This document shows positions 2,760-33,323 of a stretch of DNA of 37,202 nt, piece after piece. Each line of letters begins with the position of its first letter. The first letter of the stretch is position 1. The stretch comes from Bacteroidota bacterium (GTDB taxonomy: Bacteria; Bacteroidota; Bacteroidia; Chitinophagales; Saprospiraceae), in assembly GCA_020160935.1 (NCBI GenBank), contig JAIUPL010000041.1, positions 1-37,202 of the forward strand. The letters are read 5' to 3'. Position numbers and translations under genes: made by a program. The notes under the pieces are model-generated. The model saw nothing but the letters and a program-made list of their open reading frames with translations. It did no database searches and was not told the origin of the DNA.

Positions 2760-2787
2760 AGATAACAGATAACCAATAACTGATAAC
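2760..2787. repeat. Single-arm heptamer tract (AGATAAC x4)
   Basis: Four consecutive 7-mers, AGATAAC, AGATAAC, CAATAAC and TGATAAC, fill almost the whole 36-base gap between a stop codon (2752-2754) and the next ATG (2791). There is no reverse-complement arm. Each word contains TAA, so the tract puts stops in all three frames. Confidence 0.7.
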
Positions 2788-2790
2788 CAC

Positions 2791-3318
2791 ATGTCTTCCC
2801 GGCCCAAACTCTACGCAGCCCTTGCCGTGCTTGCTTTTTTCCTGCTCATTGCGCTGTATGCCAATGAATACCAGTATTTGTCGAATACCATCGGCGTACA
2901 AGGGCTGGTCGGCGGCTCGGTGCTGGTCGGGGTGATCGTGGCTGGCGCCGGCCTCTGGCTGGGTCAGCAGCGATTCACGCCCTGGAAGCGGCACCTGCCC
3001 GAAGTGCTCTTCATAGGGGTGTTCAGCCTGTTTTTTGCACCCTTGTTCGGCAGCCTGCTCAACCGCGCGTTCAGCCTGAAATCGTACGAATCCTTCGAGT
3101 TTGTATCCGAACAGCCCTACTTCGCTTCCGGCTATGGCGTTTTGAAAGATGAAAAACTGCAACCCACCGGCTACTACCTCCAGGTGCGTCAAAATGGCCA
3201 AATCCATCGTTTTAAATATAAAAAGCAGCCTTACTACCCCCTCACCAAACCTGGAGAAGTGATTATGCTGCCGGTCCGGCGGGGGATATTTGGGCCGAGG
3301 GTGGTTTTACTGGGGTGA
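2791..3318 (+). CDS. Small integral membrane protein, unknown function
   Basis: 175 residues. Three hydrophobic segments are visible, about residues 7-25 (LYAALAVLAFFLLIALYA), 38-56 and 70-90, followed by a soluble C-terminal domain of about 80 residues rich in Tyr, Phe and Lys (for example FKYKKQPYY). I do not recognise a named family. It lies directly downstream of the TraB-like gene and may be cotranscribed with it. The stop codon TGA (3316-3318) is already part of the first GAGTCCT word of the large hairpin behind it. Confidence 0.7.
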   Translation: MSSRPKLYAALAVLAFFLLIALYANEYQYLSNTIGVQGLVGGSVLVGVIVAGAGLWLGQQRFTPWKRHLPEVLFIGVFSLFFAPLFGSLLNRAFSLKSYESFEFVSEQPYFASGYGVLKDEKLQPTGYYLQVRQNGQIHRFKYKKQPYYPLTKPGEVIMLPVRRGIFGPRVVLLG

Positions 3319-3457
3319 GTCCTGAGTCGTAAGTCCTAAGTCCTGAGTCTGTAGAGTACACCTTGATACATCTGGCATCCAATCAGACTAACGCCAAACA
3401 TCTCAAGGCGTACTCTACAGACTTAGGACTCAGGACTCACGACTCAGGACTTTTTTT
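3317..3457 (+). terminator. Large heptamer hairpin ending in a T-run
   Basis: The left arm (3317-3366) is built from GAGTCCT/AAGTCCT 7-mers followed by TGTAGAGTACACCTTGA; the right arm (about 3402-3451) is its reverse complement with five mismatches, all transitions. The right arm runs into seven T residues (3451-3457), so the plus-strand RNA would be a very long intrinsic terminator-like hairpin for the preceding gene. It also insulates the rpsL promoter just downstream. Confidence 0.75.
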
Positions 3458-3466
3458 ACGAGACAC

Positions 3467-3498
3467 TTGGAAAATTCCCCCACTTTCCATTACCTTTG
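3467..3498 (+). promoter_or_regulatory. rpsL promoter (sigma-ABfr type)
   Basis: The -7 element TACCTTTG lies at 3491-3498 and the -33 TTG at 3467-3469, with a 21-nt spacer. This matches the Bacteroidota housekeeping consensus. Transcription would start near 3505, giving a leader of about 80 nt before rpsL at 3587. Confidence 0.75.
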
Positions 3499-3509
3499 CG
3501 TTCGCTTTT

Positions 3510-3541
3510 GGAAAAGGCATGTCCATTTGTGCCATTTTTCC
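3510..3541 (+). promoter_or_regulatory. Leader hairpin upstream of rpsL
   Basis: GGAAAA-GGCA (3510-3519) pairs with TGCC-(AT)-TTTTCC (3530-3541), a 10-bp stem with a two-base bulge and a 10-base loop. It sits inside the predicted rpsL 5' UTR and has no U-run, so it is a candidate for ribosomal-protein feedback rather than a terminator. This role is inference. Confidence 0.4.
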
Positions 3542-3586
3542 ATTGATTTTGAACGAGTTACAATAAAATTACAGTAAAATAACGGT

Positions 3587-3961
3587 ATGCCTACCATTAA
3601 TCAGCTTGTACGCAACAGCCGCGAAAAGGTGGAATACGCCAGCAAAAGCCGTGCGCTCAATTCTTGCCCGCAACGCCGTGGCGTTTGCACCCGTGTGTAC
3701 ACCACTACACCGAAGAAACCTAACTCCGCGCTGCGTAAAGTTGCCAAAGTGCGTCTGACGAACAGCATCGAGGTGATTGCATACATCCCCGGTGAAGGCC
3801 ACAACCTGCAGGAGCACTCCATCGTACTCGTACGGGGCGGTCGTGTAAAAGACCTGCCCGGTGTACGTTACACCATCGTTCGGGGTGCACTCGATACTGC
3901 CGGTGTAAACAACCGCAAGAAAAGCCGTTCGAAATACGGTTCGAAGCGTCCGAAGAAATAA
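3587..3961 (+). CDS. rpsL: 30S ribosomal protein S12
   Basis: 124 residues, normal length. S12 sits at the decoding centre of the 30S subunit and monitors codon-anticodon pairing. The sequence is diagnostic: [10 protein letters not shown] at the N-terminus, [19 protein letters not shown] in the middle and [11 protein letters not shown] near residue 90. The lysines in TPKKPNS and GRVKDLPG, where mutations give streptomycin resistance in other bacteria, are the usual sensitive residues. First gene of the str cluster, followed after a 107-base gap by rpsG; that gap is almost entirely an AATGATG hairpin. Confidence 0.98.
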
Positions 3962-3970
3962 ATCATTCTT

Positions 3971-4062
<92 letters not shown>

Positions 4063-4068
4063 AAAGAA

Positions 4069-4536
4069 ATGCGTAAGCACAAACCGAAACCTCGAGTATT
4101 GGCCGCCGATCCGCGTTATAACGACACGATGGTAACACGTTTCGTGAATAACCTGATGTGGGAGGGCAAGAAGAGCGTTGCTTATGGGATCTTCTACGAT
4201 GCATTGGATATCGTAAAATCCCGCACCAACGAGGACGAGTTGCAAGTCTGGAAAAAAGCGTTGAACAACGTCATGCCACAAGTGGAGGTTCGCAGCCGCC
4301 GTATCGGGGGCGCCACGTTCCAGATTCCGACCGAACTCCCTGCCAACCGTAAAATCTCGATTGGCATGAAGTGGCTCATTAAATATGCACGCGCCCGCAG
4401 CGGCAAAGGTATGGCCGAAAAACTGGCCGCCGAAGTCATCGCTGCATCCAAAGGCGAAGGCAGCGCCGTTAAAAAACGCGAGGATACGCACAAAATGGCT
4501 GAGGCGAACCGCGCCTTTGCCCACTTCAGAGCGTAA
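4069..4536 (+). CDS. rpsG: 30S ribosomal protein S7
   Basis: 155 residues, normal length. S7 nucleates assembly of the 16S rRNA 3' major domain. Recognisable blocks are the basic N-terminus [33 protein letters not shown] in the middle and [20 protein letters not shown] at the C-terminus. It follows rpsL in the standard str order. A terminator-like structure follows, so fusA 284 bases further on may be transcribed partly from its own promoter. Confidence 0.98.
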
Positions 4537-4576
4537 TTGCGCACAGGCGCCTGAGCACCCTACCGTCGGAACTTGC

Positions 4577-4626
4577 CCCTGCCATATTTACGTGGCAGGG
4601 CCAATTTCCGGCGGTATTGGTTTTTT
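4577..4626 (+). terminator. Double hairpin and T-run after rpsG
   Basis: An 8-bp stem CCCTGCCA/TGGCAGGG (4577-4584, 4593-4600) is immediately followed by a second, weaker stem CCAAT/ATTGG (4601-4605, 4616-4620) running into TTTTTT (4621-4626). This is a plausible intrinsic terminator or attenuator between rpsG and fusA. Confidence 0.55.
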
Positions 4627-4688
4627 AAGAGGGTTGGGATTTAAAAGAGCCATTTTATTTTCCCGAACTTTTAAAGTGCCATACGCCA

Positions 4689-4723
4689 TTTTGCCAAAGT
4701 AATTTTTGACAGGAATACATTTC
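4689..4723 (+). promoter_or_regulatory. Candidate internal promoter for fusA
   Basis: TTTTG at 4689-4693 and TACATTTC at 4716-4723 (seven of eight matches to a TAnnTTTG-type -7 box) are 22 nt apart. Together with the preceding terminator this suggests fusA has its own start site. The match is imperfect. Confidence 0.35.
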
Positions 4724-4820
4724 AACTTTTGGCAGTACCCGGCTTTTCAAATCTCCAGGCGCCAAAAGTCCGAGTCGCACTCATTTTATTTCATTCAACC
4801 ACTCAATATTATAACAAGTC

Positions 4821-6953
4821 ATGGCAAACGACCTCCGGTTCACCCGAAATATCGGTATTGCCGCTCACATCGACGCAGGTAAAACTACTACCACTGAGCG
4901 TATTCTCTACTACACCGGTGTAAACCACAAAATCGGCGAGGTACACGAAGGTGCCGCTACCATGGACTGGATGGAGCAGGAACAAGAGCGTGGTATCACG
5001 ATCACTTCCGCTGCTACCAAATGCCAATGGAAAGTAGCCGACCAGGTGTATGATTTCAACATCATCGACACCCCTGGCCACGTTGACTTTACGGTAGAGG
5101 TAAACCGCTCGCTGCGCGTACTGGACGGACTGGTGTTCCTGTTCTCCGCTGTAGACGGTGTGGAGCCGCAATCGGAAACCAACTGGCGTCTGGCCGACAA
5201 CTATAAAGTGCCGCGTATCGGTTTTGTAAACAAAATGGACCGTGCCGGTTCCGACTTCTTCATGGTTGTGAACGACATGAAAGCCAAACTGGGCGCCAAC
5301 GCAGTTCCGCTGCAGGTGCCAATCGGTTCGGAGCACAACTTCAAAGGCGTGGTCGACCTCGTAAGCGGTAAAGCCATCGTTTGGAACGAATCCGACCAGG
5401 GTATGTCGTACACGGAAATTCCGATTCCCGACGACCTGAAAGATACGGTAAACGAATACCGCCAGAAACTGATCGAAGAAGTAGCCGGCTACGACGACAC
5501 GCTGCTGGAAAAATTCTTCGACGATCCGGAAAGCATCACCATCGAGGAAATGCGTTCCGCTATCCGTGCTGCGGTCATCGACATGAAAATGACGCCCGTG
5601 ATGTGCGGTTCCGCCTTTAAAAACAAAGGCGTACAGGCTTGCCTCGACGCAGTGTGCTACTTCCTGCCTTCGCCGCTGGATAAAGACAACATTAAAGGTA
5701 CCGACCCGAAAACGGAAAACGAGATCACCCGCAAACCATCCGTGAGTGATCCGTTTACGGCCCTGGCATTCAAAATTGCTACCGACCCGTTTGTAGGCCG
5801 TCTGTGCTTCATCCGCGTGTACTCGGGCCAACTCGACGCCGGTTCCTACGTACTGAACACCCGCACGGGCGATAAAGAACGTATCAGCCGTCTGTACCAG
5901 ATGCACGCCAACAAGCAAAACCCGATCGACAAGGTAGAAGCAGGCGACATCTGTGCAGCAGTAGGTTTCAAAGACATCCGTACGGGCGATACCCTGTGCG
6001 ACGTGGCACACCCGATCATCCTCGAATCGATGGTATTCCCAGAGCCGGTAATCGGTCTGGCCGTGGAGCCAAAAACGCAGAAAGACCTGGATAAACTGGG
6101 TATGGCCCTCAACAAACTGGCTGAGGAAGACCCCACTTTCCGCGTTCGTTACGACGAAGACACCAACCAGACGGTTATCTCCGGTATGGGTGAGTTGCAC
6201 CTCGAAATCATCGTCGACCGTCTGCGTCGCGAGTTCAAGGTAGAATGCAACCAGGGCGCTCCACAGGTAAACTACAAAGAGGCTCTGACCAAAACCACTT
6301 CACACCGCGAGCGTTTGAAAAAACAATCCGGTGGTTCGGGTCTGTTCGCCGATATGGAATTCGAACTCGGCCCTGCCGATGAGGAATTCCTGAACAGCGA
6401 TGACTTCAAGAACGGCAAGAAAAAACTGCAGTTCGAATGGGCCATCGTGGGCGGTGCCATCGATAAAAACTACCAGAAGCCGATCGCCGATGGTTTCACG
6501 CAGATGATGAGCAATGGTATCCTCGCCGGTTACAACATCGACTCGATGAAAGTACGCGTGATCGACGGTGGTATGCACTCTGTGGACTCGAAACCAATCG
6601 CGTTCGAATTGTGCGCCAAAGAAGGTTTCCGCGCTGCTGCGCCGGCTACCAAACCGCAAATCATGGAGCCAATGATGAAACTGGAGGTAATCACTCCGGA
6701 AGAATACGTGGGTCCGGTGATTGGCGACCTGAACCGTCGTCGCGGCCTGCCGAAAGGCCAGGAAACGCGTATGGGCGGCGCTGTTGCTATCCAGGCGGAA
6801 GTTCCGCTGGCTGAAATGTTCGGTTACGTTACTTCGCTGCGTACCCTCACTTCCGGCCGCGCTTCTTCTACCATGGAATTCAGCCACTACGCTCCGGCGC
6901 CAGAAGGCGTTGCCAAAGCGGTGATTGAAAAAGCCAAAGGCGCGAAAGCATAA
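4821..6953 (+). CDS. fusA: Translation elongation factor G
   Basis: 710 residues, slightly longer than the E. coli protein. EF-G is the GTPase that drives tRNA-mRNA translocation and, with RRF, ribosome recycling. GTPase motifs are all present: [15 protein letters not shown] (P-loop, about residues 16-30), GITITSAAT (switch region), DTPGHVDF (G3) and NKMDRAG (G4). Domain IV features and a C-terminus with [18 protein letters not shown] are typical. No frame disruption or missing key residue was seen. Codon use is GC-rich and regular, as expected for a highly expressed gene. A strong terminator follows, and neither tuf nor rpsJ comes after it. Confidence 0.98.
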
Positions 6954-6997
6954 GATTGATTACAAGCGGTTGATTTTCAACCCGATGGAATATAGCG

Positions 6998-7035
6998 CGG
7001 GCCGCTCCGAAGTTTCGGGGCGGCCCGTTTTTTTT
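6998..7035 (+). terminator. Intrinsic terminator of fusA
   Basis: A 14-bp stem (6998-7011 with 7014-7027, one T-G pair) with a two-base loop is followed by eight T residues (7028-7035). It lies 44 bases after the fusA stop codon. The stem core GGCCGCTCCG/CGGGGCGGCC resembles the tsf and metK terminators. Confidence 0.9.
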
Positions 7036-7040
7036 GTGTT

Positions 7041-8298: not shown

Positions 8299-8307
8299 AA
8301 GAAAAAA

Positions 8308-8521
8308 GTTGAGTGGTTGAGTGGTGGAGGGGTTGAGAAGGTTGAGAAGGTTGAGGGGGTTGAGGGGGTTGAGAGGTTGAGGGGTTGAGGGGGTTGAGGG
8401 GTTGAGGGGTTGAGAGGTTGAGGGGGTTGAGAGGCCAAAAAGCAACCTTCAAGCAGGGCCAAGGGTAAAAATCTCAACTCCTCAACCCTCTCAACTCCTC
8501 AACCCCCTCAACCCTCTCAAC
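8308..8521. repeat. GGTTGAG tandem-word hairpin between GMC gene and its subunit
   Basis: The left arm (8308-8434) has about 15 GGTTGAG words separated by one or two bases, giving an 8-9 base period. The right arm (8473-8521) has six CTCAAC words, the complement. The loop includes GGCC...GGCC pairs. In the minus-strand message the repeat starts immediately after the GMC stop codon (8522-8524) and ends nine bases before the next ATG. Confidence 0.9.
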
Positions 8522-10225
8522 CTACAGACGCTTGCTCTTCATCTCCTCCACTGCAAAATCGGCCGCGCGGGCCGTGAGTGCCATATAGGTGATGGAAGGA
8601 TTGACGCAGGAGGAAGAAGTCATACAGGCGCCGTCGGTGACGAACACATTGGGTACCGCGTGCACCTGGTTGTGGGCGTTCAGCACCGATGTTTTGGGAT
8701 CGCGGCCCATGCGGGCGGTCCCCATTTCGTGTACACCTACGCCGATACCACCCATGTGATCGAAGGTGGTGACGTTTTTGAAACCTGCTTTTTCGAGCAT
8801 TTCCGCAGCGTCTTCTTTTATGTAGCGACGCATGTTCATTTCATTGGTTTTGAATTCGCAATCCATCGACAGCGTTGGCAGTCCTGCTTTGTCTTTCAGG
8901 TCGTGGTTGAGCGTCACCTTGTTTTCGTGGTAAGGCAGGCATTCGCCGAAACCGACGAGGGTCATGCCCCAGGCGCCGGGTTTGAACAGGTTGTCCTTGA
9001 AATCGCCGCCAATGCCTTCCGAGTTTACGCCCGTACTCCAGTTGCCCCTGCCGGCGCCGCCCTGGTAGCCATAGCCGCGCAGAAATTCCGGATGGCGCGT
9101 GCGTTCGTCGAGGTTTCGGAAACGCGGAATATAAATGCCATTGGGTCGGCGGCCTTTGTAATACTGATCCTGGAAGCCGTCATAACTACCCATGGCCCCG
9201 AGGCGGTAGTGGTGGTCCATGAGGTTGTGGCCGAGTTCGCCGCTGTCGTTGCCCATTCCATTGGGGAAACGCGCAGAAGTAGAGTTCAACAAAATGGCTG
9301 TAGAACCCAGTGTCGATGCATTCACAAAAATGACGCGGGCAAAAAACTCGGTGGTTTCGTGCGTAACCGTGTCAATGATGCGCACACCTGTTGCCTTGCC
9401 CGTTTTATCGTCGTACATAATGGAATGCACCGCCGAATCGGGGCGAAGGGTAAGATTTCCAGTAGCATCGGCAGCAGGAAGCGTCACGGCATTGCTGCTG
9501 AAATACGCGCCAAAGGGGCAGCCACGCGAGCATCGATTCCGGTACTGGCATTTACCGCGGCCATTGAGCGGTTCGGTCAGGTGCGCTACCCGGCCGATGG
9601 TGAGGTAACGGCCGGCAAATTCCTTTTCTATACGCGCCTTGACGTGTTTTTCTACACAATTCAACTCCATAGGTGGCAGAAAATGCCCGTCGGGCAGGTG
9701 CGAAAGCCCGAGTTTTTCGCCGCTGATACCCACGTATTTTTCAACATAAGAGTACCAAGGTTCGATGTCCTTGTAGCGGATAGGCCAGTCGACACCGATG
9801 CCTTCGCGGGCGTTGGCTTCAAAATCGAGGTCGCTCCAGCGGTAGCATTGTTTGCCCCAAAGCAGGGAACGGCCACCCACCTGATTGCCGCGAATCCAGT
9901 CGAAACGCTTTACCTCGGTGTACGGGTTATCTACATCGTTGTTGTAAAAATGTTTGTTGGTTTCATTGATGAATCCACTTCGCGTTTGCACGTAATATTG
10001 CCGTGTATCTTCATACGACAAGCGTTCGCGGTGTGCAAAATCCCAATGCTCATCGTTCATGGTGGGATAATCAGTCACATGGCGCACCATGCGGCCGCGT
10101 TCCAGCACCAGGGTTTTGAGGCCTTTTTCGCAGAGTTCCTTGGCGGCCCAGCCACCACTGATGCCGGAGCCGATGACAATGGCGTCGTAGGTGTGGTCGG
10201 CGTTGATTTGAGTAATGAAATTCAT
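8522..10225 (-). CDS. GMC family FAD-dependent oxidoreductase
   Basis: 567 residues. The Rossmann dinucleotide-binding motif GSGISGG lies at residues 19-25 (YDAIVIGSGISGG), followed by the Glu of LVLERG that binds the FAD ribose. A Cys cluster (CQYRNRCSRGCPFGAY, about residues 235-250) is seen in gluconate/fructose dehydrogenase-like GMC enzymes. The C-terminal domain ends with HEMGTARMG and CVNPSITYMALTARAA, carrying the catalytic His and Asn of GMC enzymes. With the small subunit downstream it should oxidise a sugar or polyol in the periplasm and pass electrons to a cytochrome or quinone; glucoside 3-dehydrogenases have this arrangement. The exact substrate is not readable from sequence. 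No own signal peptide is visible, as expected for a partner carried by the small subunit. Confidence 0.93.
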   Translation of the reverse strand: MNFITQINADHTYDAIVIGSGISGGWAAKELCEKGLKTLVLERGRMVRHVTDYPTMNDEHWDFAHRERLSYEDTRQYYVQTRSGFINETNKHFYNNDVDNPYTEVKRFDWIRGNQVGGRSLLWGKQCYRWSDLDFEANAREGIGVDWPIRYKDIEPWYSYVEKYVGISGEKLGLSHLPDGHFLPPMELNCVEKHVKARIEKEFAGRYLTIGRVAHLTEPLNGRGKCQYRNRCSRGCPFGAYFSSNAVTLPAADATGNLTLRPDSAVHSIMYDDKTGKATGVRIIDTVTHETTEFFARVIFVNASTLGSTAILLNSTSARFPNGMGNDSGELGHNLMDHHYRLGAMGSYDGFQDQYYKGRRPNGIYIPRFRNLDERTRHPEFLRGYGYQGGAGRGNWSTGVNSEGIGGDFKDNLFKPGAWGMTLVGFGECLPYHENKVTLNHDLKDKAGLPTLSMDCEFKTNEMNMRRYIKEDAAEMLEKAGFKNVTTFDHMGGIGVGVHEMGTARMGRDPKTSVLNAHNQVHAVPNVFVTDGACMTSSSCVNPSITYMALTARAADFAVEEMKSKRL

Positions 10226-11552: not shown

Positions 11553-11808
11553 TGAAATTTCAAGGGGCAAAAGGCAAGGGGCAAATTTCAAGGGGCAAGG
11601 GGCAAAAGGCAAAAGGCAAAATTTAAAAACTCAAAGGCTCCTTTGTCTAATTTTGGCTTCATTATCATTCCTGACCCTTGCCTTTTGCCCCTTGAAATTT
11701 GCCTCTTGCCCCTTGCCTTTTGAAATTTGCCCCTTGCCTCTTGCCTCTTGCCCCTTGCCCCTTGCCTTTTGAAATTTGCCCTTTGAAATTTGCTTTTTGA
11801 AATTTTTT
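11553..11808. repeat. AAGGGGC/AAAAGGC heptamer hairpin
   Basis: Left arm from 11562: AAGGGGC, AAAAGGC, AAGGGGC, AAATTTC, AAGGGGC and so on, in exact 7-base register. Right arm from about 11670 to 11808: some 19 words such as CCCTTGC, CTTTTGA and AATTTGC, the complements, again in 7-base register. The right arm is about twice as long as the left. The structure fills nearly the whole 274-base gap between two plus-strand genes. Confidence 0.9.
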
Positions 11809-15719: not shown

Positions 15720-15723
15720 GGGA

Positions 15724-15772
15724 GTGAGTAGTGAGTAGTGAATAGTGAGTAGTGAGTAGTGAGTAGTGAGAA
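15724..15772. repeat. Single-arm GTGAGTA heptamer tract
   Basis: Seven 7-mers in register from 15724: GTGAGTA twice, GTGAATA, GTGAGTA three times, GTGAGAA. It starts four bases after the PSD1 stop codon. No complementary arm follows, unlike the rpsI-rpsB hairpin that uses the same word. Confidence 0.85.
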
Positions 15773-20631: not shown

Positions 20632-21489
20632 ATGCAAAACATTTCCAAATTTTCCTGGCTTCTCCCTGCCCTTCTTCTTTTCAGCGCATGCAGCCACCGC
20701 TATGGCGGCCTTACGCTCTATACCGTGCGAGAAGACATGAAAAAGCAACCGAAAGAAGTCATCCAGAAAATATCCGACCTTGGATACAAATACATAGAGG
20801 CTGCAGGCTATGACAACGGCAAGTTTCACGGCATGGCCCCGACGGAATTTAAAAATTACCTGCATGAAAAAGGTTTGACCCCCATTAGCACCCACATGCC
20901 AACGGTGACGCTGGACAACGCCGATCAATTGATCGCCGACGTCAAAGCAGCCGGGTTCAAGTACTTCGTGATACCCGTGCCACCCATGGGCCATTTCAAA
21001 TATGATGCCGCCGCAAAAACCATTAGCATGAGCGAAGAGGTGGAGACCATTACCGACATCTTGAATAAAATTGGCAAAAAATGCAAGGATGCAGGGCTGG
21101 AAATGCTTTACCACAACCACGATTTCGAATTCAAAAAGAACAGCAAAGGCGTGGTGCCGATGGATTATTTTCTGACGCACGTTGACCCCCAATATGTCAA
21201 TTTCCAAATGGACCTGTACTGGGTAACCAAAGCAGGCGTCGATCCGGTGGCGTATTTTGAAAAATATCCGGGCCGCTTCATCATCTGGCACGTGAAGGAT
21301 ATGGACAAACAGGGCCGATTTGCGCCGGTGGGTGAAGGCACCATCGATTTTGCCCGAATCCTGGCGAAAAAAGAACTATCGGGCATGAAATACTACATCG
21401 TCGAGCAGGACATGACCTTCGATGGCATGCAAGCGATGCAGGCTGTGGAGATCAGCCACAAGGGATTGAAGAAGTTTGGGTTTAAATGA
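20632..21489 (+). CDS. Sugar phosphate isomerase/epimerase-like lipoprotein
   Basis: 285 residues. The N-terminus is a lipoprotein signal (FSWLLPALLLFSAC, lipobox Cys near 19), so it is a periplasmic or outer-membrane lipoprotein rather than a cytoplasmic enzyme. The remainder is a xylose-isomerase-like TIM barrel (PF01261): ISDLGYKYIEAAGY, KYFVIPVPPMG, LEMLYHNHDFEF (metal-binding His/Glu motif), VNFQMDLYWV and FIIWHVKDMD. Related Bacteroidota proteins occur with GMC oxidoreductases and act on 3-keto sugars; that role is inference here. The start at 20632 (MQNISKF) is chosen because it begins with the signal peptide; an upstream ATG at 20587 adds an unlikely 15-residue leader. Confidence 0.85.
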   Translation: MQNISKFSWLLPALLLFSACSHRYGGLTLYTVREDMKKQPKEVIQKISDLGYKYIEAAGYDNGKFHGMAPTEFKNYLHEKGLTPISTHMPTVTLDNADQLIADVKAAGFKYFVIPVPPMGHFKYDAAAKTISMSEEVETITDILNKIGKKCKDAGLEMLYHNHDFEFKKNSKGVVPMDYFLTHVDPQYVNFQMDLYWVTKAGVDPVAYFEKYPGRFIIWHVKDMDKQGRFAPVGEGTIDFARILAKKELSGMKYYIVEQDMTFDGMQAMQAVEISHKGLKKFGFK

Positions 21490-21569: not shown

Positions 21570-21639
21570 AAAAGCCAGTCGTTGTTCGGTGGTAGTATGG
21601 GCTTTAGCCCATACTACCACCGAACAACGATTGGCTTTT
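21570..21639. repeat. 70-bp near-perfect palindrome
   Basis: AAAAGCCAGTCGTTGTTCGG and onward (from 21570) is the reverse complement of the right half ending at 21639, with a single G/A transition and a two- to four-base loop (GCTTTAGC centre). It lies between two plus-strand genes, 80 bases after the first stop. It lacks the heptamer register and is followed only by GG, so it is not a textbook terminator. Confidence 0.85.
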
Positions 21640-21675: not shown

Positions 21676-22758
21676 ATGCGCTTCCTGAAAAACTTATTTG
21701 CAAACAATCACCCGATACGCACCTATTCCGATTTCTGGAACTGGTTTAAAAAACAGGAGCGCACGTTTTTTCGCACTGTCCGCCGGGGCGTCCATATTGA
21801 AAAAGCGTTTCTGGATCAGGTATCGCCTAAACTTGCAGAACTGCATGAGGGTATCGGGCTGCTGACCGGTATGTACGATGACCAGACGGCCGAACTCATT
21901 TTTACTATCGAGGGACTTGTCCGAAATGTATTTTGGGTGGAAGACCTGGTACAACACGCCCCTGCTATAGAAGGCTGGAAGTTTACGGCACTTACGCCTC
22001 CTGTCGATATCCAAAACTGCAATATCGACATGCATGGCAGGAGTTTCAATGGCGCCAATCTGTTTTTCTATGCAAATGACCTGCCCGAATACCCCGATGA
22101 GATAGACCTGGCTGTTGTGTACAGCGGGTACGAAGAAAAAGACGCCGATCAAATCATTCACGGCTGTCACATCTTTCTGGATAATTTCCTGGGGGAACTT
22201 GATTTTGCCACAAAGATCGACAACATAGACGTGATGGGGCCACAAGATGCGACCAGGGAATTGATTCCGATCAGCAAGTTAAAGGCTTATCTGAACTGGC
22301 GCGAAAAAGAGTTTCTGGAGAAATATGACACCTTCCAGGCGCCTGAAAATCAAACATTTACACTTTTTACTGCAAAAGATAAAGAGGGTAATCCAGCCAT
22401 CGCAATCATCAATACTGCTTTGCTGGATTGGGGTGAAAAAGCATCGCATTCCTGGATAACAATCATTGAAATAATGCTCTCCACTGAAGGATTACCGGAT
22501 GCTGAAACAAACCAGGCGCTTGTTGACTGGGAAGAGCAACTACTGCGCCACCTTCAGCCATTGGAGGGGCATTTGCACATCGGCCGACAGACTACCTCTG
22601 GGAAACGGGACATTTATTTCGCTTCCAGAGAATTTCGTGCGTTTTCAAAGGCGGTATTCGAATACATACATTTCCCCAAAGCCGATATGGAAATTTCCTA
22701 CAGGATATTTCGCGACAAATACTGGCAAGGATTCGAGCGGTTCCAAAAGAAGTTGTAG
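21676..22758 (+). CDS. DUF695 domain protein
   Basis: 360 residues, no signal peptide, probably cytoplasmic. The C-terminal region (about residues 210-360) resembles DUF695: LNWREKEFLEKYDTF, then LVDWEEQLLRHLQPL and HIGRQTTSGKRDIYFASREF, then DKYWQGFERFQ. The first 200 residues are acidic and aromatic (NWFKKQERTFFRTV, FTIEGLVRNVFWVEDL) and match no family I can name. The function of DUF695 is unknown. The start at 21676 follows the palindrome; an upstream ATG at 21589 would translate the palindrome itself. It appears to stand alone and is convergent with the Old Yellow Enzyme gene, the stops being 28 bases apart. Confidence 0.7.
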   Translation: MRFLKNLFANNHPIRTYSDFWNWFKKQERTFFRTVRRGVHIEKAFLDQVSPKLAELHEGIGLLTGMYDDQTAELIFTIEGLVRNVFWVEDLVQHAPAIEGWKFTALTPPVDIQNCNIDMHGRSFNGANLFFYANDLPEYPDEIDLAVVYSGYEEKDADQIIHGCHIFLDNFLGELDFATKIDNIDVMGPQDATRELIPISKLKAYLNWREKEFLEKYDTFQAPENQTFTLFTAKDKEGNPAIAIINTALLDWGEKASHSWITIIEIMLSTEGLPDAETNQALVDWEEQLLRHLQPLEGHLHIGRQTTSGKRDIYFASREFRAFSKAVFEYIHFPKADMEISYRIFRDKYWQGFERFQKKL

Positions 22759-24871: not shown

Positions 24872-24983
24872 GTGTTTTTGTGTTTTTGTGTTTTTGTGTT
24901 TTTGTGGTGCTTCGCTTCCGGAATGGAAAATGATTTGAGCGAAGTACCACCAAAACACTAAAACACCAAAACACTAAAACACC
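24872..24983. repeat. TGTTTTTG octamer hairpin between rpsB and tsf
   Basis: The left arm (24872-24907) has four TGTTTTTG words, the right arm (24946-24983) CACCAAAA/CACTAAAA words, the complement, with an 8-base period. Inside, GTGGTGCTTCGCT pairs with AGCGAAGTACCAC and encloses TTCCGGAA. In the minus-strand message the structure starts three bases after the rpsB stop. Confidence 0.9.
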
Positions 24984-24986
24984 AAT

Positions 24987-25712: not shown

Positions 25713-25733
25713 GATTCAAAAGCAAGTTTTATA

Positions 25734-25855
25734 GTGAGTGGTGAGTGGTGAGTGGTCAGTAGTGAGTGGTTAGCAGTGAGTGGTCAGTAGTGAGTGGTGA
25801 GTGATAAACACTCTATTCACTACTCACTATTCACTACTCACTATTCACTACTCAC
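25734..25855. repeat. GTGAGTG/GTGAGTA heptamer hairpin between rpsI and rpsB
   Basis: Left arm (25734-25803): ten 7-mers in register, mostly GTGAGTG with GTCAGTA and GTTAGCA variants. Right arm (25811-25855): alternating ACTCACT and ATTCACT 7-mers, the complement of GTGAGTA/GTGAATA. In the minus-strand message the GTGAGTA arm comes first, four bases after the rpsI stop. It shares its word with the single-arm tract at 15724. Confidence 0.9.
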
Positions 25856-25859
25856 AATT

Positions 25860-26262: not shown

Positions 26263-26808
<546 letters not shown>

Positions 26809-26937: not shown

Positions 26938-27112
26938 GGAATCTTGAAAGTTTTTCCTGTTGTTTTTTCATAAAACATTGATAATGAGGGGAATTTTGGC
27001 TCTCATGAAAAATGTTAATGTTTTTTATAGTTTTGTTTTAATGTTGATTATCAAGCATTTATGTTAAATATCTGTTTATAGTTACTTTCCTTGCTAAGTA
27101 GTATTTTTTTAT

Positions 27113-27278
27113 AAACCAGGAAGAACACGAGGGACACAAAGCGTAGCGTACACTTTTTTACGCTTGATCTATATCAGTTGTTGATACATGATGACGCATA
27201 TAAGGTGTACGCTACGCTTTGTTTCCTTGGTGTCCTCCGTGGTTCAATAAATAAAATATTGGTGTCCTTCGTGGTTTA
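27113..27278. repeat. Palindrome with GGTGTCC(T/C)YCGTGGTT repeats
   Basis: The left half (about 27113-27153, ending CACAAAGCGTAGCGTACAC) is complementary to the right half (about 27202-27244, GTGTACGCTACGCTTTGT and onward). A third copy of the end word, GGTGTCCTTCGTGGTTT, follows at 27261-27277. The core resembles the palindrome at 1657-1771. It lies in the 551-base gap between rplM and metK, both minus-strand genes. Confidence 0.75.
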
Positions 27279-28745: not shown

Positions 28746-28910
28746 GAAGTTCCCGTTGGGAAAAAGAAGGGAACTTGCCGTTCGTTGTGCAGTAGATCGT
28801 ACATTGAACGCCTTTGTACACATCCCTGCAACCCAAAATCACCAACAGCCCTGTAATTTGTCATGCAAGCGCATTAAACATGCCCTTACTTTTGAGCGTT
28901 TATCAGAGAA

Positions 28911-29564
28911 ATGCAGCATATGTCAACAGATATCTCTACCCTGCGTAAAAATTATGCCCGGGAAGCCCTCTCGGAAAGCGATGTTTCATCCAGTCCGCTG
29001 GTTCAATTTGATCGCTGGTTTCAGGAAGCGCTCGATGCACAACTGACCGAACCGAATGCCATGACCCTGGCTACCGCTACCCGCGACGGCCACCCCAGCG
29101 CCCGCACTGTACTTTTGAAAGGGGTCGACAAGGAAGGGTTCGTGTTTTTTACCAATTATGAAAGCCGAAAAGGACAGGAACTCGCCGACAATCCGCAGGC
29201 GGCTCTCCTGTTTACCTGGCTCGAACTGGAGCGACAGGTTCGTATTGAAGGCATGATTGAGCGTATTTCAGCCGAAGCATCAGAGGCTTATTTCCAAAGC
29301 AGACCCAAAGGAAGCCAGATTGGCGCCTGGGTGAGTCCGCAAAGCCGTGTTATTCCCGGCAGGGAGGTGCTGGAAGCCAAACAACAGGCACTGGAAGCCG
29401 AATATGCCCACGCCGAAGTGTTGCCTCGGCCTACATTTTGGGGCGGGTATCGTTTGCTTCCCGATACGGTGGAATTCTGGCAAGGGCGGCCGAGCAGACT
29501 ACACGACCGCATTTTGTACCGGCGTTTTGCCGGCGCCTGGAAAATTGAACGGCTGGCACCCTAA
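28911..29564 (+). CDS. pdxH: Pyridoxamine 5'-phosphate oxidase
   Basis: 217 residues, normal length. PdxH is the FMN enzyme that oxidises pyridoxamine/pyridoxine 5'-phosphate to pyridoxal phosphate, the last step of vitamin B6 synthesis and salvage. Aligns in my reading with the E. coli enzyme throughout: [19 protein letters not shown], then [57 protein letters not shown], and the C-terminal [13 protein letters not shown] with IERLAP at the end. The start could be 28911 (MQHMST) or the nearby in-frame ATG at 28920. It is divergent from metK, sharing the 294-base gap. The stop is 20 bases from that of the convergent beta-propeller gene. Confidence 0.96.
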
Positions 29565-29583
29565 ACTGCTTTCAGAACGTGTT

Positions 29584-30408
29584 CTAATATAGCATTGCAT
29601 ACACTTCCACGCCTTCCGGGGTTTGCACCATCACCCAGGAGTGTGAGGTCCATACTTTCTTGCCACGGGCACGAGGTGGTAATACAAGTTGTTCGCTTTG
29701 CAGGCGTCCAGGGTTTTCAAAACGCAATACATCCTTTTCGACAAACACCAACCAGTCGCCCAAGACTTCAAACTCCAGCGTTTTCAAGTGCTGGTAGGCA
29801 CGCAAAAAAACGCCGTACTGGTCGAACGTAGCGATCCCCTGCTGTGGATCACTTACAAAAACCATGTTCCCATTGTCGTGTATGCAGGCTGCGCTGAAGG
29901 GCCGGGGAAAAATCAGGTTCAAGGGTTGACTTTCCTGCAACACAGTGCCATCAGAAGCAATCTTCAGCAAGCGAAAACGCGTGTCGTCGTACAGCCAGAT
30001 ATTGCCGTCCTGTGCCAGGGCAACGGCTCTTACGGATATATAACCTGCATCGTTGAGTGCAATTTGTCCGATTTCGTTCAGGGTGCGATCCAGGGTTACA
30101 ATTGTTTGAAAATCAGCATACCACAGGAGTATTTTCAATGGATTGGACACATCCGCCACCGCCAGCGAACCCAGTCGGTTATTGGTATAACGCGCCACCC
30201 TTTTCCCTGTAGAATCGTATTTTTCGAAAGCATTGTTTTCTCCGATCAAGTAAATATTGGAGAGGTGGTCGGCACTTGCAAATGTTGCACGTGCAGGTAA
30301 GGTGAAAAGCAACCGGGCGCTATCGGCAGCCTGAACAGGAGCCTGAGCCGCCATTTGCAGAGATGCGCAGGTCGCAAAAGCCGCTATGATCGAAACACAA
30401 TAATTCAT
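29584..30408 (-). CDS. Periplasmic six-bladed beta-propeller-like protein
   Basis: 274 residues with a signal peptide (VSIIAAFATCASLQMAAQA, cleavage near AQA). The mature part has repeated blades of the type found in 6-bladed propellers: HLSNIYLIGENNAFEKYDS, NEIGQIALNDAG, GNIWLYDDTRFRLLKI, GNMVFVSDPQQGIATFDQYG, and DWLVFVEKDVLRFEN. It lacks a T9SS tail and a lipobox. Function unknown; possibly a binding scaffold. It is convergent with pdxH and divergent from hsp20. Confidence 0.7.
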   Translation of the reverse strand: MNYCVSIIAAFATCASLQMAAQAPVQAADSARLLFTLPARATFASADHLSNIYLIGENNAFEKYDSTGKRVARYTNNRLGSLAVADVSNPLKILLWYADFQTIVTLDRTLNEIGQIALNDAGYISVRAVALAQDGNIWLYDDTRFRLLKIASDGTVLQESQPLNLIFPRPFSAACIHDNGNMVFVSDPQQGIATFDQYGVFLRAYQHLKTLEFEVLGDWLVFVEKDVLRFENPGRLQSEQLVLPPRARGKKVWTSHSWVMVQTPEGVEVYAMLY

Positions 30409-30478
30409 TTCTACAATGCTATTCTACTGAACCGCCTGGACACAATTTTATTGTTTGCACCTGGGAAGAAACACTGTA

Positions 30479-30523
30479 TGACAAAATGTCACTAGTAACA
30501 ATTCAATTCGCGCCATTTTGACA
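30479..30523 (+). promoter_or_regulatory. Candidate operator upstream of the Hsp20 gene
   Basis: TGACA-AAA-TGTCA (30479-30491) is a perfect interrupted palindrome, and a half-site-like TTTTGACA recurs at 30516-30523. They lie about 140-185 bases before the Hsp20 start and could be a stress-regulator site. No exact sigma-ABfr promoter is visible in this AT-rich 254-base gap. Which of the two divergent genes it would control is uncertain. Confidence 0.35.
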
Positions 30524-30662
30524 CTCGACGCTTTCAGATAAATGCCAAATTATCCGTTTTTCCCTGCTGGTACGGCATTTGAAAAAAGGAGTTCGTCCGA
30601 CGCACAAATGGGTGTTGGACCTCAGATCGAAAACTTCTTTTAAAACTACAAATTTTTAAAAA

Positions 30663-31106
30663 ATGACAAACATCGTAAAATTTCATCCGTACCCTTCAAC
30701 CAAAACCTTTGTCAACGGTTTATTTGATGAGTTCTTCAATCGTAACCTGGCTGATCATGTGGGCGGTGACAATTTTGTGAGCCATGCAGCTGTCAACGTC
30801 GTCGAAACGGATGACGCCTTCCGCATTGAAATGGCTGCTCCAGGTTTCGACAAGCAGAACTTCTCCCTTCAGGTGGAAAATGACCAACTGACGATTGAAG
30901 CCAAACAAGAAACCAAAAAAGAAGAAACCAACGAGCGCTACACACGCCGTGAGTTTCAGGTAAATGCAATTAAACGTTCTTTCAAATTGCCAAAAACGGT
31001 GAACCAGGATGCCATCAATGCTGTTTATGAAAATGGTATTCTGAATGTCACTATCGGCAAGAAGGAAGAAACCAAACCCCTCGTAAAAACCATCACGATC
31101 GGCTAA
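30663..31106 (+). CDS. Hsp20/alpha-crystallin small heat-shock protein
   Basis: 147 residues. ATP-independent holdase that keeps unfolding proteins soluble. The alpha-crystallin domain spans about residues 38-140: VNVVETDDAFRIEMAAPGF, then QVENDQLTIEAKQE, RREFQVNAIKRSFKLP and the hallmark AVYENGILNVTI. The N-terminal FVNGLFDEFFNR is typical of Bacteroidota Hsp20. A terminator follows 64 bases after the stop. Monocistronic. Confidence 0.95.
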   Translation: MTNIVKFHPYPSTKTFVNGLFDEFFNRNLADHVGGDNFVSHAAVNVVETDDAFRIEMAAPGFDKQNFSLQVENDQLTIEAKQETKKEETNERYTRREFQVNAIKRSFKLPKTVNQDAINAVYENGILNVTIGKKEETKPLVKTITIG

Positions 31107-31169
31107 TAGGCTGATCTGCAACAAGTTGTTTTCATAAGGTTAGTTAATAGGGTTTTAGGTGTTTTCATG

Positions 31170-31200
31170 GAGCCGGGGCAGCAATGTCCTGGCTCTTTTT
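31170..31200 (+). terminator. Intrinsic terminator of the Hsp20 gene
   Basis: GAGCCGGG (31170-31177) pairs with CCTGGCTC (31188-31195, one wobble), followed by TTTTT. The -33 element of the next promoter overlaps this T-run. Confidence 0.75.
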
Positions 31201-31227
31201 GTTTTCATCTTACATCACCTACCTTTG
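31198..31227 (+). promoter_or_regulatory. Promoter of the TPR-like/rsmG operon
   Basis: TTTG (31198-31201) and TACCTTTG (31220-31227) are 18 nt apart, a good sigma-ABfr match. Start codon at 31278. Confidence 0.65.
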
Positions 31228-31277
31228 CTTTTTTTGTGTGGGAAGCCAACATCTTCCATATTCCCAAATCCAGCGTC

Positions 31278-32543
31278 ATGATTTCCGATTCTGAAGAAAA
31301 TATATCCTCAACTACAGCCTGGGATGCCCTGCGATCGCCTGAATCTCCCGAATTCAAGTCGACCTATCTGGCTTATCAGAAGCAGGTAGCCGCCGTCGTT
31401 GCAAGTGGGGAAGCCACTTTTGCCGACGGCGCTGTGTTTTACAGAGTGGCTGTTATTCACCTTGCCCAAATGGTGCAATCGGGGCATATTCCGACGGATA
31501 TTTCATTGGAAAAATATCTGGAAGCACTTGCTATGGCGCACTACCACGACTGGCAAGCCGAACGTAAAGGTGCTGCCGTTGCAGAAGTCGCCCCGGGTGC
31601 GGCTTCCGAGGCTCCACTACCCGATTGGGCCGAATTTCGGGAAATACGTCATAGTATCTGGGCGCGCCGCCAGTTTTTCAGGCTTTCGAAAGAATATGGT
31701 TATCGCATTCAGGAATTGGCCGATGATGCAGCATTGCCTCTTTCCGAGCGACGATTTGCGACAGAAACAGCCGCCATCGAAGAAGGATATGGCCCTGCAC
31801 TGACGGCGTATAAAAATCTGTTGCAGGACTATCAGGTATATTGGAAAGATGTGTTGCCTGCATGGGTGGTAAAAGCATTGACCAATCCCGATTTTATTGC
31901 CGTTTGGGATCGAACCCAACAATTAGAACAGGAACGCACGAAAGCGGCTGAAGCGCCACCTGAAACCAGTCATTTTTGGCGCAATGCCTTCGTTGTGATG
32001 GGTATCGTCACCATTATCGGTATTGCCTTGCAATGGTGGATGCGCCCTAAAACGCCACATGAGGTGTATGAGGACAACTTTTCGGCTCCTAAAAGCCTGA
32101 TCGCCGATCTGGCTCAGCGCCGTGAGCAAAGCCCCGACAAAGATTCGCTGGGCACGCGGACAATGCTTTGCGAAGATGCTTTTCGCGCGGCTGACGAGGC
32201 ATATCGGCAACACGACTATCGTTCGGCAGCATCTGAACTGAGCATCATACTCGACGATACCAGCACGGTTTGTCATTCTGATGCATATTTCTACCTGGCA
32301 ATTATTGGATTACACATCGACGAACCAGGCCTTACCATCGAGTGCCTGTCCAATATCGAAGATCTTTCCAGGTATGGAGAAGACATTTACTGGTATCAGG
32401 CGTTGGCGTTTGTGAAAATGGCTACCAAGAATCCGATGGTGCACGACAAGGCGGTTCGTGCTGTTGAACGGGTCATTTCCAATACTGAAATTCCGGAGCG
32501 CCGGCAACAGGCAGAAAAAATGCTCCAGCAACTCAACAACTAG
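31278..32543 (+). CDS. Membrane-anchored TPR-like protein, unknown function
   Basis: 421 residues. A cytoplasmic N-terminal helical region (about 1-230, rich in Ala, Glu and Trp; SYLAYQKQ-like and LEKYLEALAMAHYHDWQ helices) precedes one transmembrane helix near residues 236-254 (AFVVMGIVTIIGIALQWWM). After it come two or three TPR-like helical pairs: LCEDAFRAADEAYRQHDYRS, AYFYLAIIGLHIDEPG and IYWYQALAFVKMATKN. Topology: N-terminus inside, TPR domain outside, or the reverse. No named family recognised. The start at 31278 (MISDSEEN) fits the promoter at 31220; an earlier ATG at 31167 lies in the terminator. rsmG starts four bases after the stop, so the two are cotranscribed. Confidence 0.75.
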   Translation: MISDSEENISSTTAWDALRSPESPEFKSTYLAYQKQVAAVVASGEATFADGAVFYRVAVIHLAQMVQSGHIPTDISLEKYLEALAMAHYHDWQAERKGAAVAEVAPGAASEAPLPDWAEFREIRHSIWARRQFFRLSKEYGYRIQELADDAALPLSERRFATETAAIEEGYGPALTAYKNLLQDYQVYWKDVLPAWVVKALTNPDFIAVWDRTQQLEQERTKAAEAPPETSHFWRNAFVVMGIVTIIGIALQWWMRPKTPHEVYEDNFSAPKSLIADLAQRREQSPDKDSLGTRTMLCEDAFRAADEAYRQHDYRSAASELSIILDDTSTVCHSDAYFYLAIIGLHIDEPGLTIECLSNIEDLSRYGEDIYWYQALAFVKMATKNPMVHDKAVRAVERVISNTEIPERRQQAEKMLQQLNN

Positions 32544-32547
32544 TGTG

Positions 32548-33189
32548 ATGGACGATTTGATCAGGAAGTACTTCCCCGGGCAAACACCCGACCAATATGC
32601 TCAATTTGAGCAACTTACATCTTTATACACTGATTGGAACAGCAAAATCAATGTGATTTCACGCCTCGATATCGACAACCTGCAGGAACGGCATGTGTTG
32701 CATTCGCTGGCTATCGCCCACCTGTTTACTTTTAAACCTGGTGCACAGGTGCTCGATTTGGGCACGGGCGGTGGATTCCCTGGAATTCCACTGGCTATTT
32801 TTTTTCCGGAAACACAATTCACCCTCGTCGATGGCACCGGCAAAAAAATCAGGGTTGTCCAGGCCGTTGCAGAGGCGCTAGGCCTTGAAAATGTGAAGGC
32901 CCTGCACAGCCGTGTGGAGGACCTTCGCATGAACATGGGATTCGACTTCGTTGTCACACGCGCAGTTGCCCCGCTCGATCAATTGATGCAATGGGGTCAA
33001 CGACTGATTAAAAGGAAACACACACACAGTTACCCCAACGGGCTGATAGCGCTGAAAGGTGGTGATATTCGTTCCGAGATAAAGGCTTTACCTGGCAAGG
33101 CTGACAATTACACGGAAATATTCCCAATTCGGGAATTTTACAAAGAGCCTTTTTTTGATGAAAAGTTTGTGGTGTATGTGCAAGGTTGA
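32548..33189 (+). CDS. rsmG: 16S rRNA (guanine527-N7)-methyltransferase RsmG
   Basis: 213 residues. RsmG (GidB) methylates N7 of G527 of 16S rRNA, using SAM. The SAM-binding motif is VLDLGTGGGFPGIPLAI (about residues 70-86), with TLVDGTGKK next and VVTRAVAPLDQL near residue 137. The N-terminal LTSLYTDWNSKINVISR is typical. The start at 32548 lies four bases after the previous stop; upstream codons in frame read into the previous gene. The stop codon (33187-33189) is inside the left arm of a 139-base palindrome. Loss of this enzyme gives low-level streptomycin resistance in other bacteria. Confidence 0.95.
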   Translation: MDDLIRKYFPGQTPDQYAQFEQLTSLYTDWNSKINVISRLDIDNLQERHVLHSLAIAHLFTFKPGAQVLDLGTGGGFPGIPLAIFFPETQFTLVDGTGKKIRVVQAVAEALGLENVKALHSRVEDLRMNMGFDFVVTRAVAPLDQLMQWGQRLIKRKHTHSYPNGLIALKGGDIRSEIKALPGKADNYTEIFPIREFYKEPFFDEKFVVYVQG

Positions 33190-33323
33190 ATTAGGATTTT
33201 TAGGATTTTAAGAATTAGAAGGATTCCCAACTGAGCGTTGACAATTGATGAATTTAAAAAAATGTGTCAATGCTCAGTTAGGAATCCTTCTAATCCTTAA
33301 AATCCCAAAAATCCTAATTCAAC
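33185..33323. repeat. Long palindrome between convergent rsmG and glucosaminidase genes
   Basis: 59-base arms (33185-33243 and 33265-33323) with only four mismatches, all transitions, around a 21-base loop. The arms start with TTAGGATT-type words and end with AACTGAGC. The left arm already contains the rsmG stop; the right arm ends six bases before the stop of the opposite gene (33330-33332). It could terminate both convergent transcripts. An 8-base register is loosely visible. Confidence 0.9.

What the first reader, a model, noticed from the sequence alone, without database searches (positions are those of the whole stretch)
2760..33323. A family of heptamer-built hairpins placed right behind stop codons, each with its own word
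Seen directly: ten intergenic stretches (2760, 3317, 3971, 8308, 11553, 15724, 24872, 25734, 26263, 33185) consist of short tandem words. Seven of them (2760, 3317, 3971, 11553, 15724, 25734, 26263) keep an exact 7-base register; the others use 8-9 bases. Eight are inverted repeats with complementary arms; two are single-arm. All begin within about 21 bases of the preceding stop codon, several overlapping it. The words differ between loci (AGATAAC, GAGTCCT, AATGATG, GGTTGAG, AAGGGGC, GTGAGTA, TGTTTTTG, TTAGGATT), so they are not simple copies of one mobile element. Established: heptanucleotide tandem repeats (STRR) are known from heterocystous cyanobacteria, and degenerate heptamers form the P6b stem of the cyanobacterial tRNA-Leu intron. 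Inference: a comparable process operates here, perhaps slippage plus template switching that turns a tandem tract into a hairpin, fixed at 3' ends because they tolerate or benefit from structure. Most words include a stop triplet, and a 7-base period shows it in all frames.
Basis: partly seen in the sequence, partly recalled or inferred. Interest (0 to 1): 0.85.

Follow-up and report, generated by a model that had tools for sequence, protein, structure and literature searches.

The report
Word-swapping intergenic palindromes in a bacterium
The gaps between this bacterium's genes carry many DNA hairpins whose arms repeat short 7-10-letter words; its closest relative keeps most of them in the same place but sometimes with a different word, so this looks like a known class of repeat that gets rewritten in place.

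Summary
The observation largely holds. All ten elements exist; eight are inverted repeats, seven have a 7-base register, and all lie beside a stop codon, four of them on the minus strand. In 818 kb of the same genome, tandem tracts of period 7-10 occupy 125 of 423 gaps (2 after shuffling) and 8 of 581 genes. "Each with its own word" is wrong: ten elements use eight words, and AATGATG arrays recur across the genome. About half of the gaps with tracts (59 of 125) share an inner core with another gap of the same word: dispersed near-palindromes. One core occurs with several words. Stop adjacency is a preference: 24 of 96 divergent gaps also carry tracts. Against the sister species, position is conserved (both 17, one only 7, neither 24), the word differs in 4 of 18 gaps, and some elements match other loci better than their ortholog. 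With three further relatives, positional conservation was not significant. Some words fit the Class II motif of the cyanobacterial tRNA-Leu intron; fixed arm polarity matches Xanthomonas GGGAATC repeats. Best reading: dispersed non-coding palindromes whose arms turn over by slippage, hairpin-templated copying and replacement. They are not intrinsic terminators as a class. Mechanism inferred; no enzyme identified.

The parts
2759..2789 (+). single-arm tract, word CAGATAA/CTGATAAC, 5 nt behind the stop of the gene 1882-2754
   Evidence: does not fold
3316..3451 (+). two-arm element, word TGAGTCC (CCTGAGT family) with core GTAGAGTACACC; stop codon 3316-3318 is part of the first unit; T7 follows
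   Evidence: (I5)
3966..4065 (+). two-arm element, word AATGATG, between rpsL and rpsG; word TATGAGT at this place in G028 and G016
   Evidence: (I22)
8308..8523 (-). two-arm element, words of 8-9 bases (GTTGAGGG); abuts the stop of the minus-strand gene 8522-10225
   Evidence: I14
11555..11805 (+). two-arm element, words CAAGGGG/CAAAAGG
   Evidence: I1
15723..15770 (+). single-arm tract, word AGTGAGT, 4 nt behind a stop; GTGAGAG words at this place in G028
24872..24985 (-). two-arm element, word GTGTTTTT (8 bases), between rpsB and tsf (minus strand)
25732..25859 (-). two-arm element, word GTGAGTG/GTGAGTA, between rpsI and rpsB (minus strand); TATGAGT at this place in G028 and G031
26263..26371 (-). 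two-arm element, word AATGATG, between rplM and rpsI (minus strand)
   Evidence: (I18)
33184..33324 (.). two-arm element, 9-base word TTAGGATTT, between convergent genes; overlaps the stop at 33187-33189
   Evidence: (I3)

Best explanation
These are non-coding, near-palindromic intergenic elements, many of them dispersed, built in two layers: an inner core hairpin, shared within some families, and outer arms made of 7-10-base tandem words. SHOWN: far above chance; words recur; about half of the gaps share a core with another gap of the same word; one core occurs with several words; position is conserved to the sister species while word, loop or copy can differ; arms of one element match each other better than chance pairs of the same word. 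INFERRED: (1) units are gained and lost by replication slippage; (2) a polymerase paused at the hairpin switches to the opposite arm as template, which makes the arms complementary and mirrors variant units; (3) sometimes the copying runs on another dispersed element and returns, overwriting word and core while leaving the flanks, or adding a nested palindrome in the loop. They gather beside gene ends, most of all stops, probably because they do least harm there. Inside ribosomal-protein gene runs they may act as intercistronic hairpins, but no function is shown.
For: Enrichment. Families and cores: 59 of 125 gaps share a core with a same-word gap; dozens of roughly 120-160 bp copies, on both strands, of single elements in the sister genome and the own genome (lists capped). 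Core with several words: GTAGAGT core preceded by CCTGAGT, GTGAGAG, ACACAAAG and CGCAGA words, and by CGAAGTG words at the ortholog of L192:701 in G006. Position against G028: both 17, G000 only 1, G028 only 6, neither 24, odds ratio 68, p 4e-7. In-place change with flanks kept; base stem CACACAAAGA/TCTTTGTGTG constant in four species at L187:15104 with the words above it changed. Replacement: the G028 element before rpsL has a 96% copy in G028 but 79% to its ortholog (rank 14 of 24); L192:701 77%, rank 20 of 23. Unit-number change: one unit in G000, four in G028 at L190:17880. Arms: 51 of 72. Half-changed, mixed or nested elements. Tree conflict at rpsL-rpsG.
Against: Positional conservation was not significant with G016, G006 or G031 (p 0.16, 0.37, 0.72). 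Cores are not shared for AGTGAGT (0 of 7), AAGGGGC (0 of 10), TTGAGGG (0 of 5) and AATGATG (0 of 2), so copying is not shown for them. Arm matching was not above chance for AGTGAGT and TTGAGGG. In 4 of 11 tested elements the ortholog is the best match, as plain inheritance predicts. Rapid decay of one copy could mimic replacement. No switch point and no copying event was observed directly. Gene calls are home-made.
Confidence: 0.55

Rival explanations
1. Each tract arises in place by slippage and is turned into a hairpin by template switching; words change by point mutation and homogenisation, without exchange between loci.
For: AATGATG, GATGAGT and TATGAGT are one or two substitutions apart, and G016 mixes them in one element. 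G007/G009 differ by 166 against 13 bp of one array. AGTGAGT and AAGGGGC share no core between loci. One-armed states occur at rpsL-rpsG in G005 and partly in G008, G024 and G032.
Against: Shared cores in 59 of 125 gaps, 96% copies elsewhere, orthologs that are not the best match in 7 of 11.
Confidence: 0.2
2. Miniature transposable elements moved by a transposase, possibly a RAYT (PF01797), with arms as variable ends.
For: Dispersed palindromic copies. 21 of 33 congeners with a PF01797 match have the NNTGAGT arrays, against 1 of 8 without (p 0.016). The core holds GTAG, the tag of one REP superfamily (PMC3733652 seen only as abstract start in a listing).
Against: The two PF01797 loci of this genome are flanked by other palindromes; the only heptamer tract in the two 3.2-3.3 kb loci stands downstream of another gene in L195. 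RAYT count and array load correlate weakly (rho 0.31, p 0.05), genome size better (0.58) and confounds. Outer ends are not constant, and insertion beside a pre-existing element does not remove it, whereas swaps keep the flanks. Target-site duplications were not testable here.
Confidence: 0.15
3. Selected intercistronic or 3'-end RNA hairpins (message stability, processing, insulation) whose sequence is free as long as the arms pair.
For: Strong folding (median -107.9 kcal/mol over 58 co-directional hairpins), stop proximity 48 of 73 against 29.9 expected, hairpin kept while words change at rpsL-rpsG and at L187:15104, a place in each gap of rplM-rpsI-rpsB-tsf.
Against: 25% of divergent gaps carry them; single-arm tracts occupy the same places (43 of 123 labelled gaps lack a clear second arm of the same word); 19 of 41 congeners lack NNTGAGT arrays, and G013 and G021 have 30-nt rpsL-rpsG gaps without a hairpin.
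Confidence: 0.15
4. Intrinsic terminators.
For: T7 follows the 3317 element and T6 the base stem at L187:15104.
Against: A T4 run follows 5 of 58 co-directional hairpins, below the 14.6% background; several lie inside ribosomal-protein gene runs.
Confidence: 0.05

Closest known systems
GGGAATC / GGGGA(C/T)T heptamer repeats of Xanthomonas and Nostoc (Rehm et al. 2015, PMC4692102; sections 10, 13, 16 and passages read)
   Same: Tandem heptamers, mostly intergenic, close to the stop on the coding strand, few between divergent genes, 70 and 75 inverted pairs all convergent in two Xanthomonas species, places kept with length and sequence variation between species.
   Different: One word per organism there, proposed as G-quadruplexes; here many words of 7-10 bases, most unable to form quadruplexes, shared cores, and exchange of words at kept places.
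P6b stem of the cyanobacterial tRNA-Leu group I intron, Class I TDNGATT and Class II NNTGAGT (PMC4476775, PMC3488679; passages read)
   Same: Hairpin arms of degenerate heptamers, the same motif classes for some words, repeated replacement of one class by the other at a fixed place.
   Different: One site inside an intron; here intergenic and at many loci; only 4 of 19 words fit Class II and 1 fits Class I.
TAACTGA repeats of Beggiatoaceae, Cyanobacteria and some Bacteroidetes (MacGregor 2015, PMC4679880; abstract and sections 3, 10, 16 read)
   Same: Intergenic heptamers, patchy distribution, also in ribosomal-protein operons.
   Different: One word, mostly direct repeats just before start codons; here palindromes, mostly behind stops.
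REPINs (Bertels and Rainey 2011, PMC3116915; abstract read)
   Same: Dispersed extragenic hairpins without genes.
   Different: Constant REP ends linked to RAYT genes there; variable tandem-word ends here, not seen flanking the two own PF01797 genes.

Membership tests
bacterial heptamer simple-sequence repeats | tandem units with period 7 over-represented in intergenic DNA | tested here: met
   663 vs 15 shuffled; lags 8-10 also raised
bacterial heptamer simple-sequence repeats | copy-number variation of the unit between relatives | tested here: met
   L190:17880 one vs four units; G007/G009 gap 20, 13 vs 166 bp
Xanthomonas-type inverted heptamer pairs | pairs always convergent, G-rich strand first | tested here: met
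   80 of 80 two-arm elements keep one first arm per word; first arm G over C in 88 of 108, reverse in 13
Xanthomonas-type inverted heptamer pairs | word GGGAATC, quadruplex-forming | tested here: not met
   word inventory has no GGGAATC
tRNA-Leu intron P6b heptamers | word classes TDNGATT / NNTGAGT | tested here: inconclusive
   4 and 1 of 19 words; none of five words in 200 kb of Nostoc plasmids fits NNTGAGT (by reading)
tRNA-Leu intron P6b heptamers | located in a group I intron | tested here: not met
   elements are intergenic; no Rfam match at gathering score in four sources
MITE / REPIN | near-identical dispersed copies with a hairpin | tested here: met
   96% over 158 bp between loci of G028; cores shared in 59 of 125 gaps
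MITE / REPIN | constant ends | tested here: not met
   outer arms are different words around one core
MITE / REPIN | association with a RAYT or parent transposase | tested here: inconclusive
   not flanking the two own PF01797 genes; weak genome-level association
MITE / REPIN | target-site duplication | not testable with these tools
   no clean filled/empty pair was found
intrinsic terminator | hairpin followed by a T run | tested here: not met
   5 of 58, background 14.6%

The most novel reading that the evidence does not exclude
One DNA process, shared by distant phyla, writes G-rich 7-10-base words (often NNTGAGT) into the outer arms of palindromes, G-rich arm first, and exchanges the word at a fixed place while the hairpin persists. 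The Xanthomonas GGGAATC pairs, the class switches in the Nostoc tRNA-Leu intron and these elements would be outcomes of that one process, carried out by an unidentified replication or repair activity.
Probability: 0.2. Interest if true: 0.85.

Novelty: new variant of a known kind. Interest (0 to 1): 0.6.

Why it matters
Heptamer repeats have been described one word at a time, and why seven bases and why those words is open. One genus here offers many words, array loads from 0 to 707 matches per genome, kept places and visible exchanges, so origin, polarity and route of copying become testable by sequencing relatives. If the arms are kept complementary by mutation, this would also caution against reading compensatory changes in hairpins as proof of function.

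Tried and rejected
Intrinsic terminators: no T-run enrichment. Reverse transcriptase as the writing enzyme: no RVT_1 match in five of the nine congeners with 50 or more array matches, and no correlation with load (rho 0.02; most of these assemblies are fragmented). Loss of SbcCD as the cause: TIGR00619 is over its cut-off in 5 of 41 congeners (38 have a weak match), but load is 0 in many without it and 161 in G008 with it. Stop triplets as the purpose: AAGGGGC, GTGTTTTT and GTTATCAG words carry none on the first arm (reading); TGA is nonetheless frequent (10 of 19 words on either strand, 4.4 expected). Known RNA families: none at gathering score in four sources; the sub-threshold miRNA matches look like matches of any long hairpin. 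Rho sites were considered, not tested.

Results against my reading, in one place: position not significantly conserved with three of four relatives; no shared core for four word groups; Nostoc plasmids (200 kb) have only 7 period-7 arrays, no more than periods 4-6 (7, 7, 8), none with NNTGAGT; the reversed TATGAGT pattern, itself an NNTGAGT word, matches in 8 of 395 Bacteroidota against 19 for the pattern; hairpins without word tracts also lean to a G-rich first arm (97 to 44 of 171).

Misfires and dropped rows: the built-in control is void, because the pattern equals its own reverse. One search was meant for the rpsL-rpsG gap of G028; the stretch chosen was the gap before rpsL. Of the G007/G009 gaps 9 of 99 passed the detector, several not word tracts. 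One search found no plasmid match (low-complexity filter is on). One search tested 11 of 17 G028 gaps (tract span of at least 45 nt). One search kept 108 of 125. At rpsL-rpsG I labelled 13 of 30 genomes by eye; G005, G007, G008, G009, G024 and G032, which have one arm, unlike arms or other words, were not labelled. Eleven own stretches with known AATGATG hits (L164, L168-L177) were left out of all counts except. Gene calls come from my own codon-bias caller; word labels rest on word lists of mine. rpsG and fusA are named from reading, not from a family scan.
Full report
Organism. The window is the whole contig C18 of a 5.84 Mb, 51-contig genome, G000. By rpsG the nearest named records are Saprospiraceae and relatives (best 78% identity, Lewinella sp. 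and Phaeodactylibacter luteus), so this is one of the Bacteroidota. One search gave 36 and one search gave 40 other genomes of the same genus.

Check of the observation. Tandem Repeats Finder, direct reading and the inverted-repeat search show all ten elements: seven of period 7, three of 8-9; eight inverted repeats, two single-arm. Neighbouring genes include rpsL, rplM, rpsI, rpsB and tsf. All ten lie within about 20 nt of a stop codon, but for 8308, 24872, 25734 and 26263 that stop is at the right-hand end, on the minus strand. Two words are used twice, so ten elements have eight words.

Extent. In 23 stretches of the same genome (418 kb) 7-mer matches at lag 7 number 663 in intergenic DNA, 15 after shuffling and 71 in 355 kb of coding DNA; lags 8, 9 and 10 (505, 250, 138) and sums such as 14, 16, 17, 21 and 24 are high, lags 4-6 and 11 are not, 12 and 13 little. 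In 43 stretches (818 kb) tracts occur in 73 of 253 co-directional, 28 of 74 convergent and 24 of 96 divergent gaps, against 1, 1 and 0 after shuffling, and in 8 of 581 genes. In co-directional gaps 48 of 73 begin within 25 nt of the upstream stop; uniform placement gives 29.9 and at most 38 in 2000 trials; 26 end within 25 nt of the start. Stop adjacency is real but not exclusive. In 80 loci from other bacteria (1.17 Mb) arrays of period 7-10 number 27, against 91 in 455 kb here at a slightly looser threshold.

Families. Of 125 gaps with tracts, 123 fall into eleven word groups by my word lists. With the words masked, the core is shared with another gap of the same word in 59 of 125: 17 of 19 CCTGAGT, 17 of 18 TATGAGT, 16 of 36 GTGAGAG, 4 of 10 TTGATGAGG, and 0 of 10 AAGGGGC, 0 of 7 AGTGAGT, 0 of 5 TTGAGGG and 0 of 2 AATGATG. 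Three 20-kb own stretches, searched in four relatives, gave many short matches of about 100-160 bp on both strands, most in G028 (lists capped), as expected of dispersed palindromes. The core GTAGAGT-N-AC follows CCTGAGT, GTGAGAG, ACACAAAG and CGCAGA words, so core and word are separable. Elements can be nested (TTGAGGG inside a TATGAGT element, L190:3480) or have unlike arms (L179:18224).

Polarity. In 80 of 80 two-arm elements each word group has one fixed first arm. The first arm has G over C in 88 of 108 hairpins and C over G in 13; hairpins in gaps without tracts lean the same way, less strongly (97 to 44 of 171). Two hairpins in 200 kb of Nostoc plasmids (AAAAGGG, AAGGCAG) have the same sense, and Rehm et al. 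report 70 and 75 inverted GGGAATC pairs in two Xanthomonas species, all convergent. I have no tested explanation.

Relatives. G028 is syntenic with most of the window. Flanks are conserved up to the element while the word differs at rpsL-rpsG (AATGATG/TATGAGT), at 8308, at 15724 (AGTGAGT/GTGAGAG, single-arm) and at 25734 (AGTGAGT/TATGAGT); the word is the same at 3317, 11553, 24872 and 26263. Over 48 orthologous gaps of the window and three other stretches, both have a tract in 17, G000 alone in 1, G028 alone in 6, neither in 24 (odds ratio 68, p 4e-7); the word is the same in 14 and different in 3, and 15724, not in that set, adds a fourth. With G016, G006 and G031 the association was not significant (p 0.16, 0.37, 0.72; 34, 19 and 29 gaps); words differed in 4 of 8, 2 of 4 and 2 of 9 labelled cases. 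A tree of rpsL, rpsG and part of fusA gives ((G028,G000),(G016,(G031,G006))) with full support, while word and loop at rpsL-rpsG group G000 with G031, G006 and G023, and G028 with G016 (reading). The fewest word changes there are 7 for 6 words in the 13 genomes that I labelled. At L187:15104 a base stem followed by T6 is constant in four species while the upper stem changes word.

Replacement. The G028 element before rpsL is 96% identical over 158 bp to a copy on another contig of G028 but 79% to its ortholog, which ranks 14th of 24 hits in the sampled G000 gaps; L192:701 gives 77% and rank 20 of 23. Of 11 elements tested, the ortholog was the best hit for 4, a lower hit for 4 and no hit for 3. 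Fast decay of one copy is an alternative.

Arms. The arms of one element match better than the median of arms from other elements of the same word in 51 of 72 cases; AGTGAGT and TTGAGGG do not show this. Template switching within a hairpin would give it (Monttinen and Loytynoja 2022, PMC8794818, abstract and opening text seen); so would selection on pairing.

Distribution. TGAGTNNTGAGTNNTGAGT matches in 22 of 41 congeners, 0 to 707 times. TATGAGTx3 matches in 19 of 395 Bacteroidota, this genome included; the reversed pattern in 8. Load rises with genome size (rho 0.58), less with PF01797 counts (0.31) and not with RVT_1 (0.02).

Known kinds. Four of 19 period-7 words fit NNTGAGT, Class II of the Nostoc P6b stem (0.27 expected); in the congener loci 4 of 19 (0.43 expected), with no Class I word. 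Eight paper searches listed studies on Xanthomonas and Nostoc, Beggiatoaceae and lichen Nostoc; no listed title described word exchange at fixed places in Bacteroidota. The library holds open-licence papers only, and I read parts of six.

Verdict. Real, abundant and of a partly known kind. New here are the many words on separable cores, the change of word or copy at a kept place, and the fixed polarity across words. Mechanism and function are inferred.

Noticed in passing
window 4537-4820 (rpsG-fusA gap): About 280 nt conserved in five species of the genus with paired motifs (TACCGTCG...CGGCGGTA; TGGCAGGG) and no Rfam match: a candidate leader RNA of fusA.
   Followed up: partly
window 36907-37054: 54-base unit, 2.7 copies, each unit itself a palindrome (TTTGACAACTTTTAAAAAGTTGTCAAA).
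   Followed up: no
window 1657-1771 and 27104-27254: Long palindromes with CACAAAGG-type words and the GTAGAGT/GTAGCGT core; at 1657 the core is on the outside, the reverse of the usual order.
   Followed up: partly
window 21570-21639: A 34-bp inverted repeat, 97% complementary, 2 nt loop, without tandem words, between genes 20632-21489 and 21676-22758.
   Followed up: no
L187:15104-15666: Conserved stretch with GGGGAC...CCCC and a terminator-like base stem whose upper part is a heptamer element; possibly an unnamed small RNA.
   Followed up: partly
L195 and L196: The two PF01797 (RAYT-like) genes of the genome; each is flanked by other long palindromes that may be their own repeats.
   Followed up: partly
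L050 (Chitinophaga MAG) 1345-1559 and 2298-2473: Another member of the Bacteroidota with dense period-7 intergenic arrays in other words (GTCCATA, ACCCGAT, CTCTAGC).
   Followed up: partly
41 genomes of the genus: SbcD (TIGR00619) is over its cut-off in only 5 of 41, which may permit long palindromes.
   Followed up: partly
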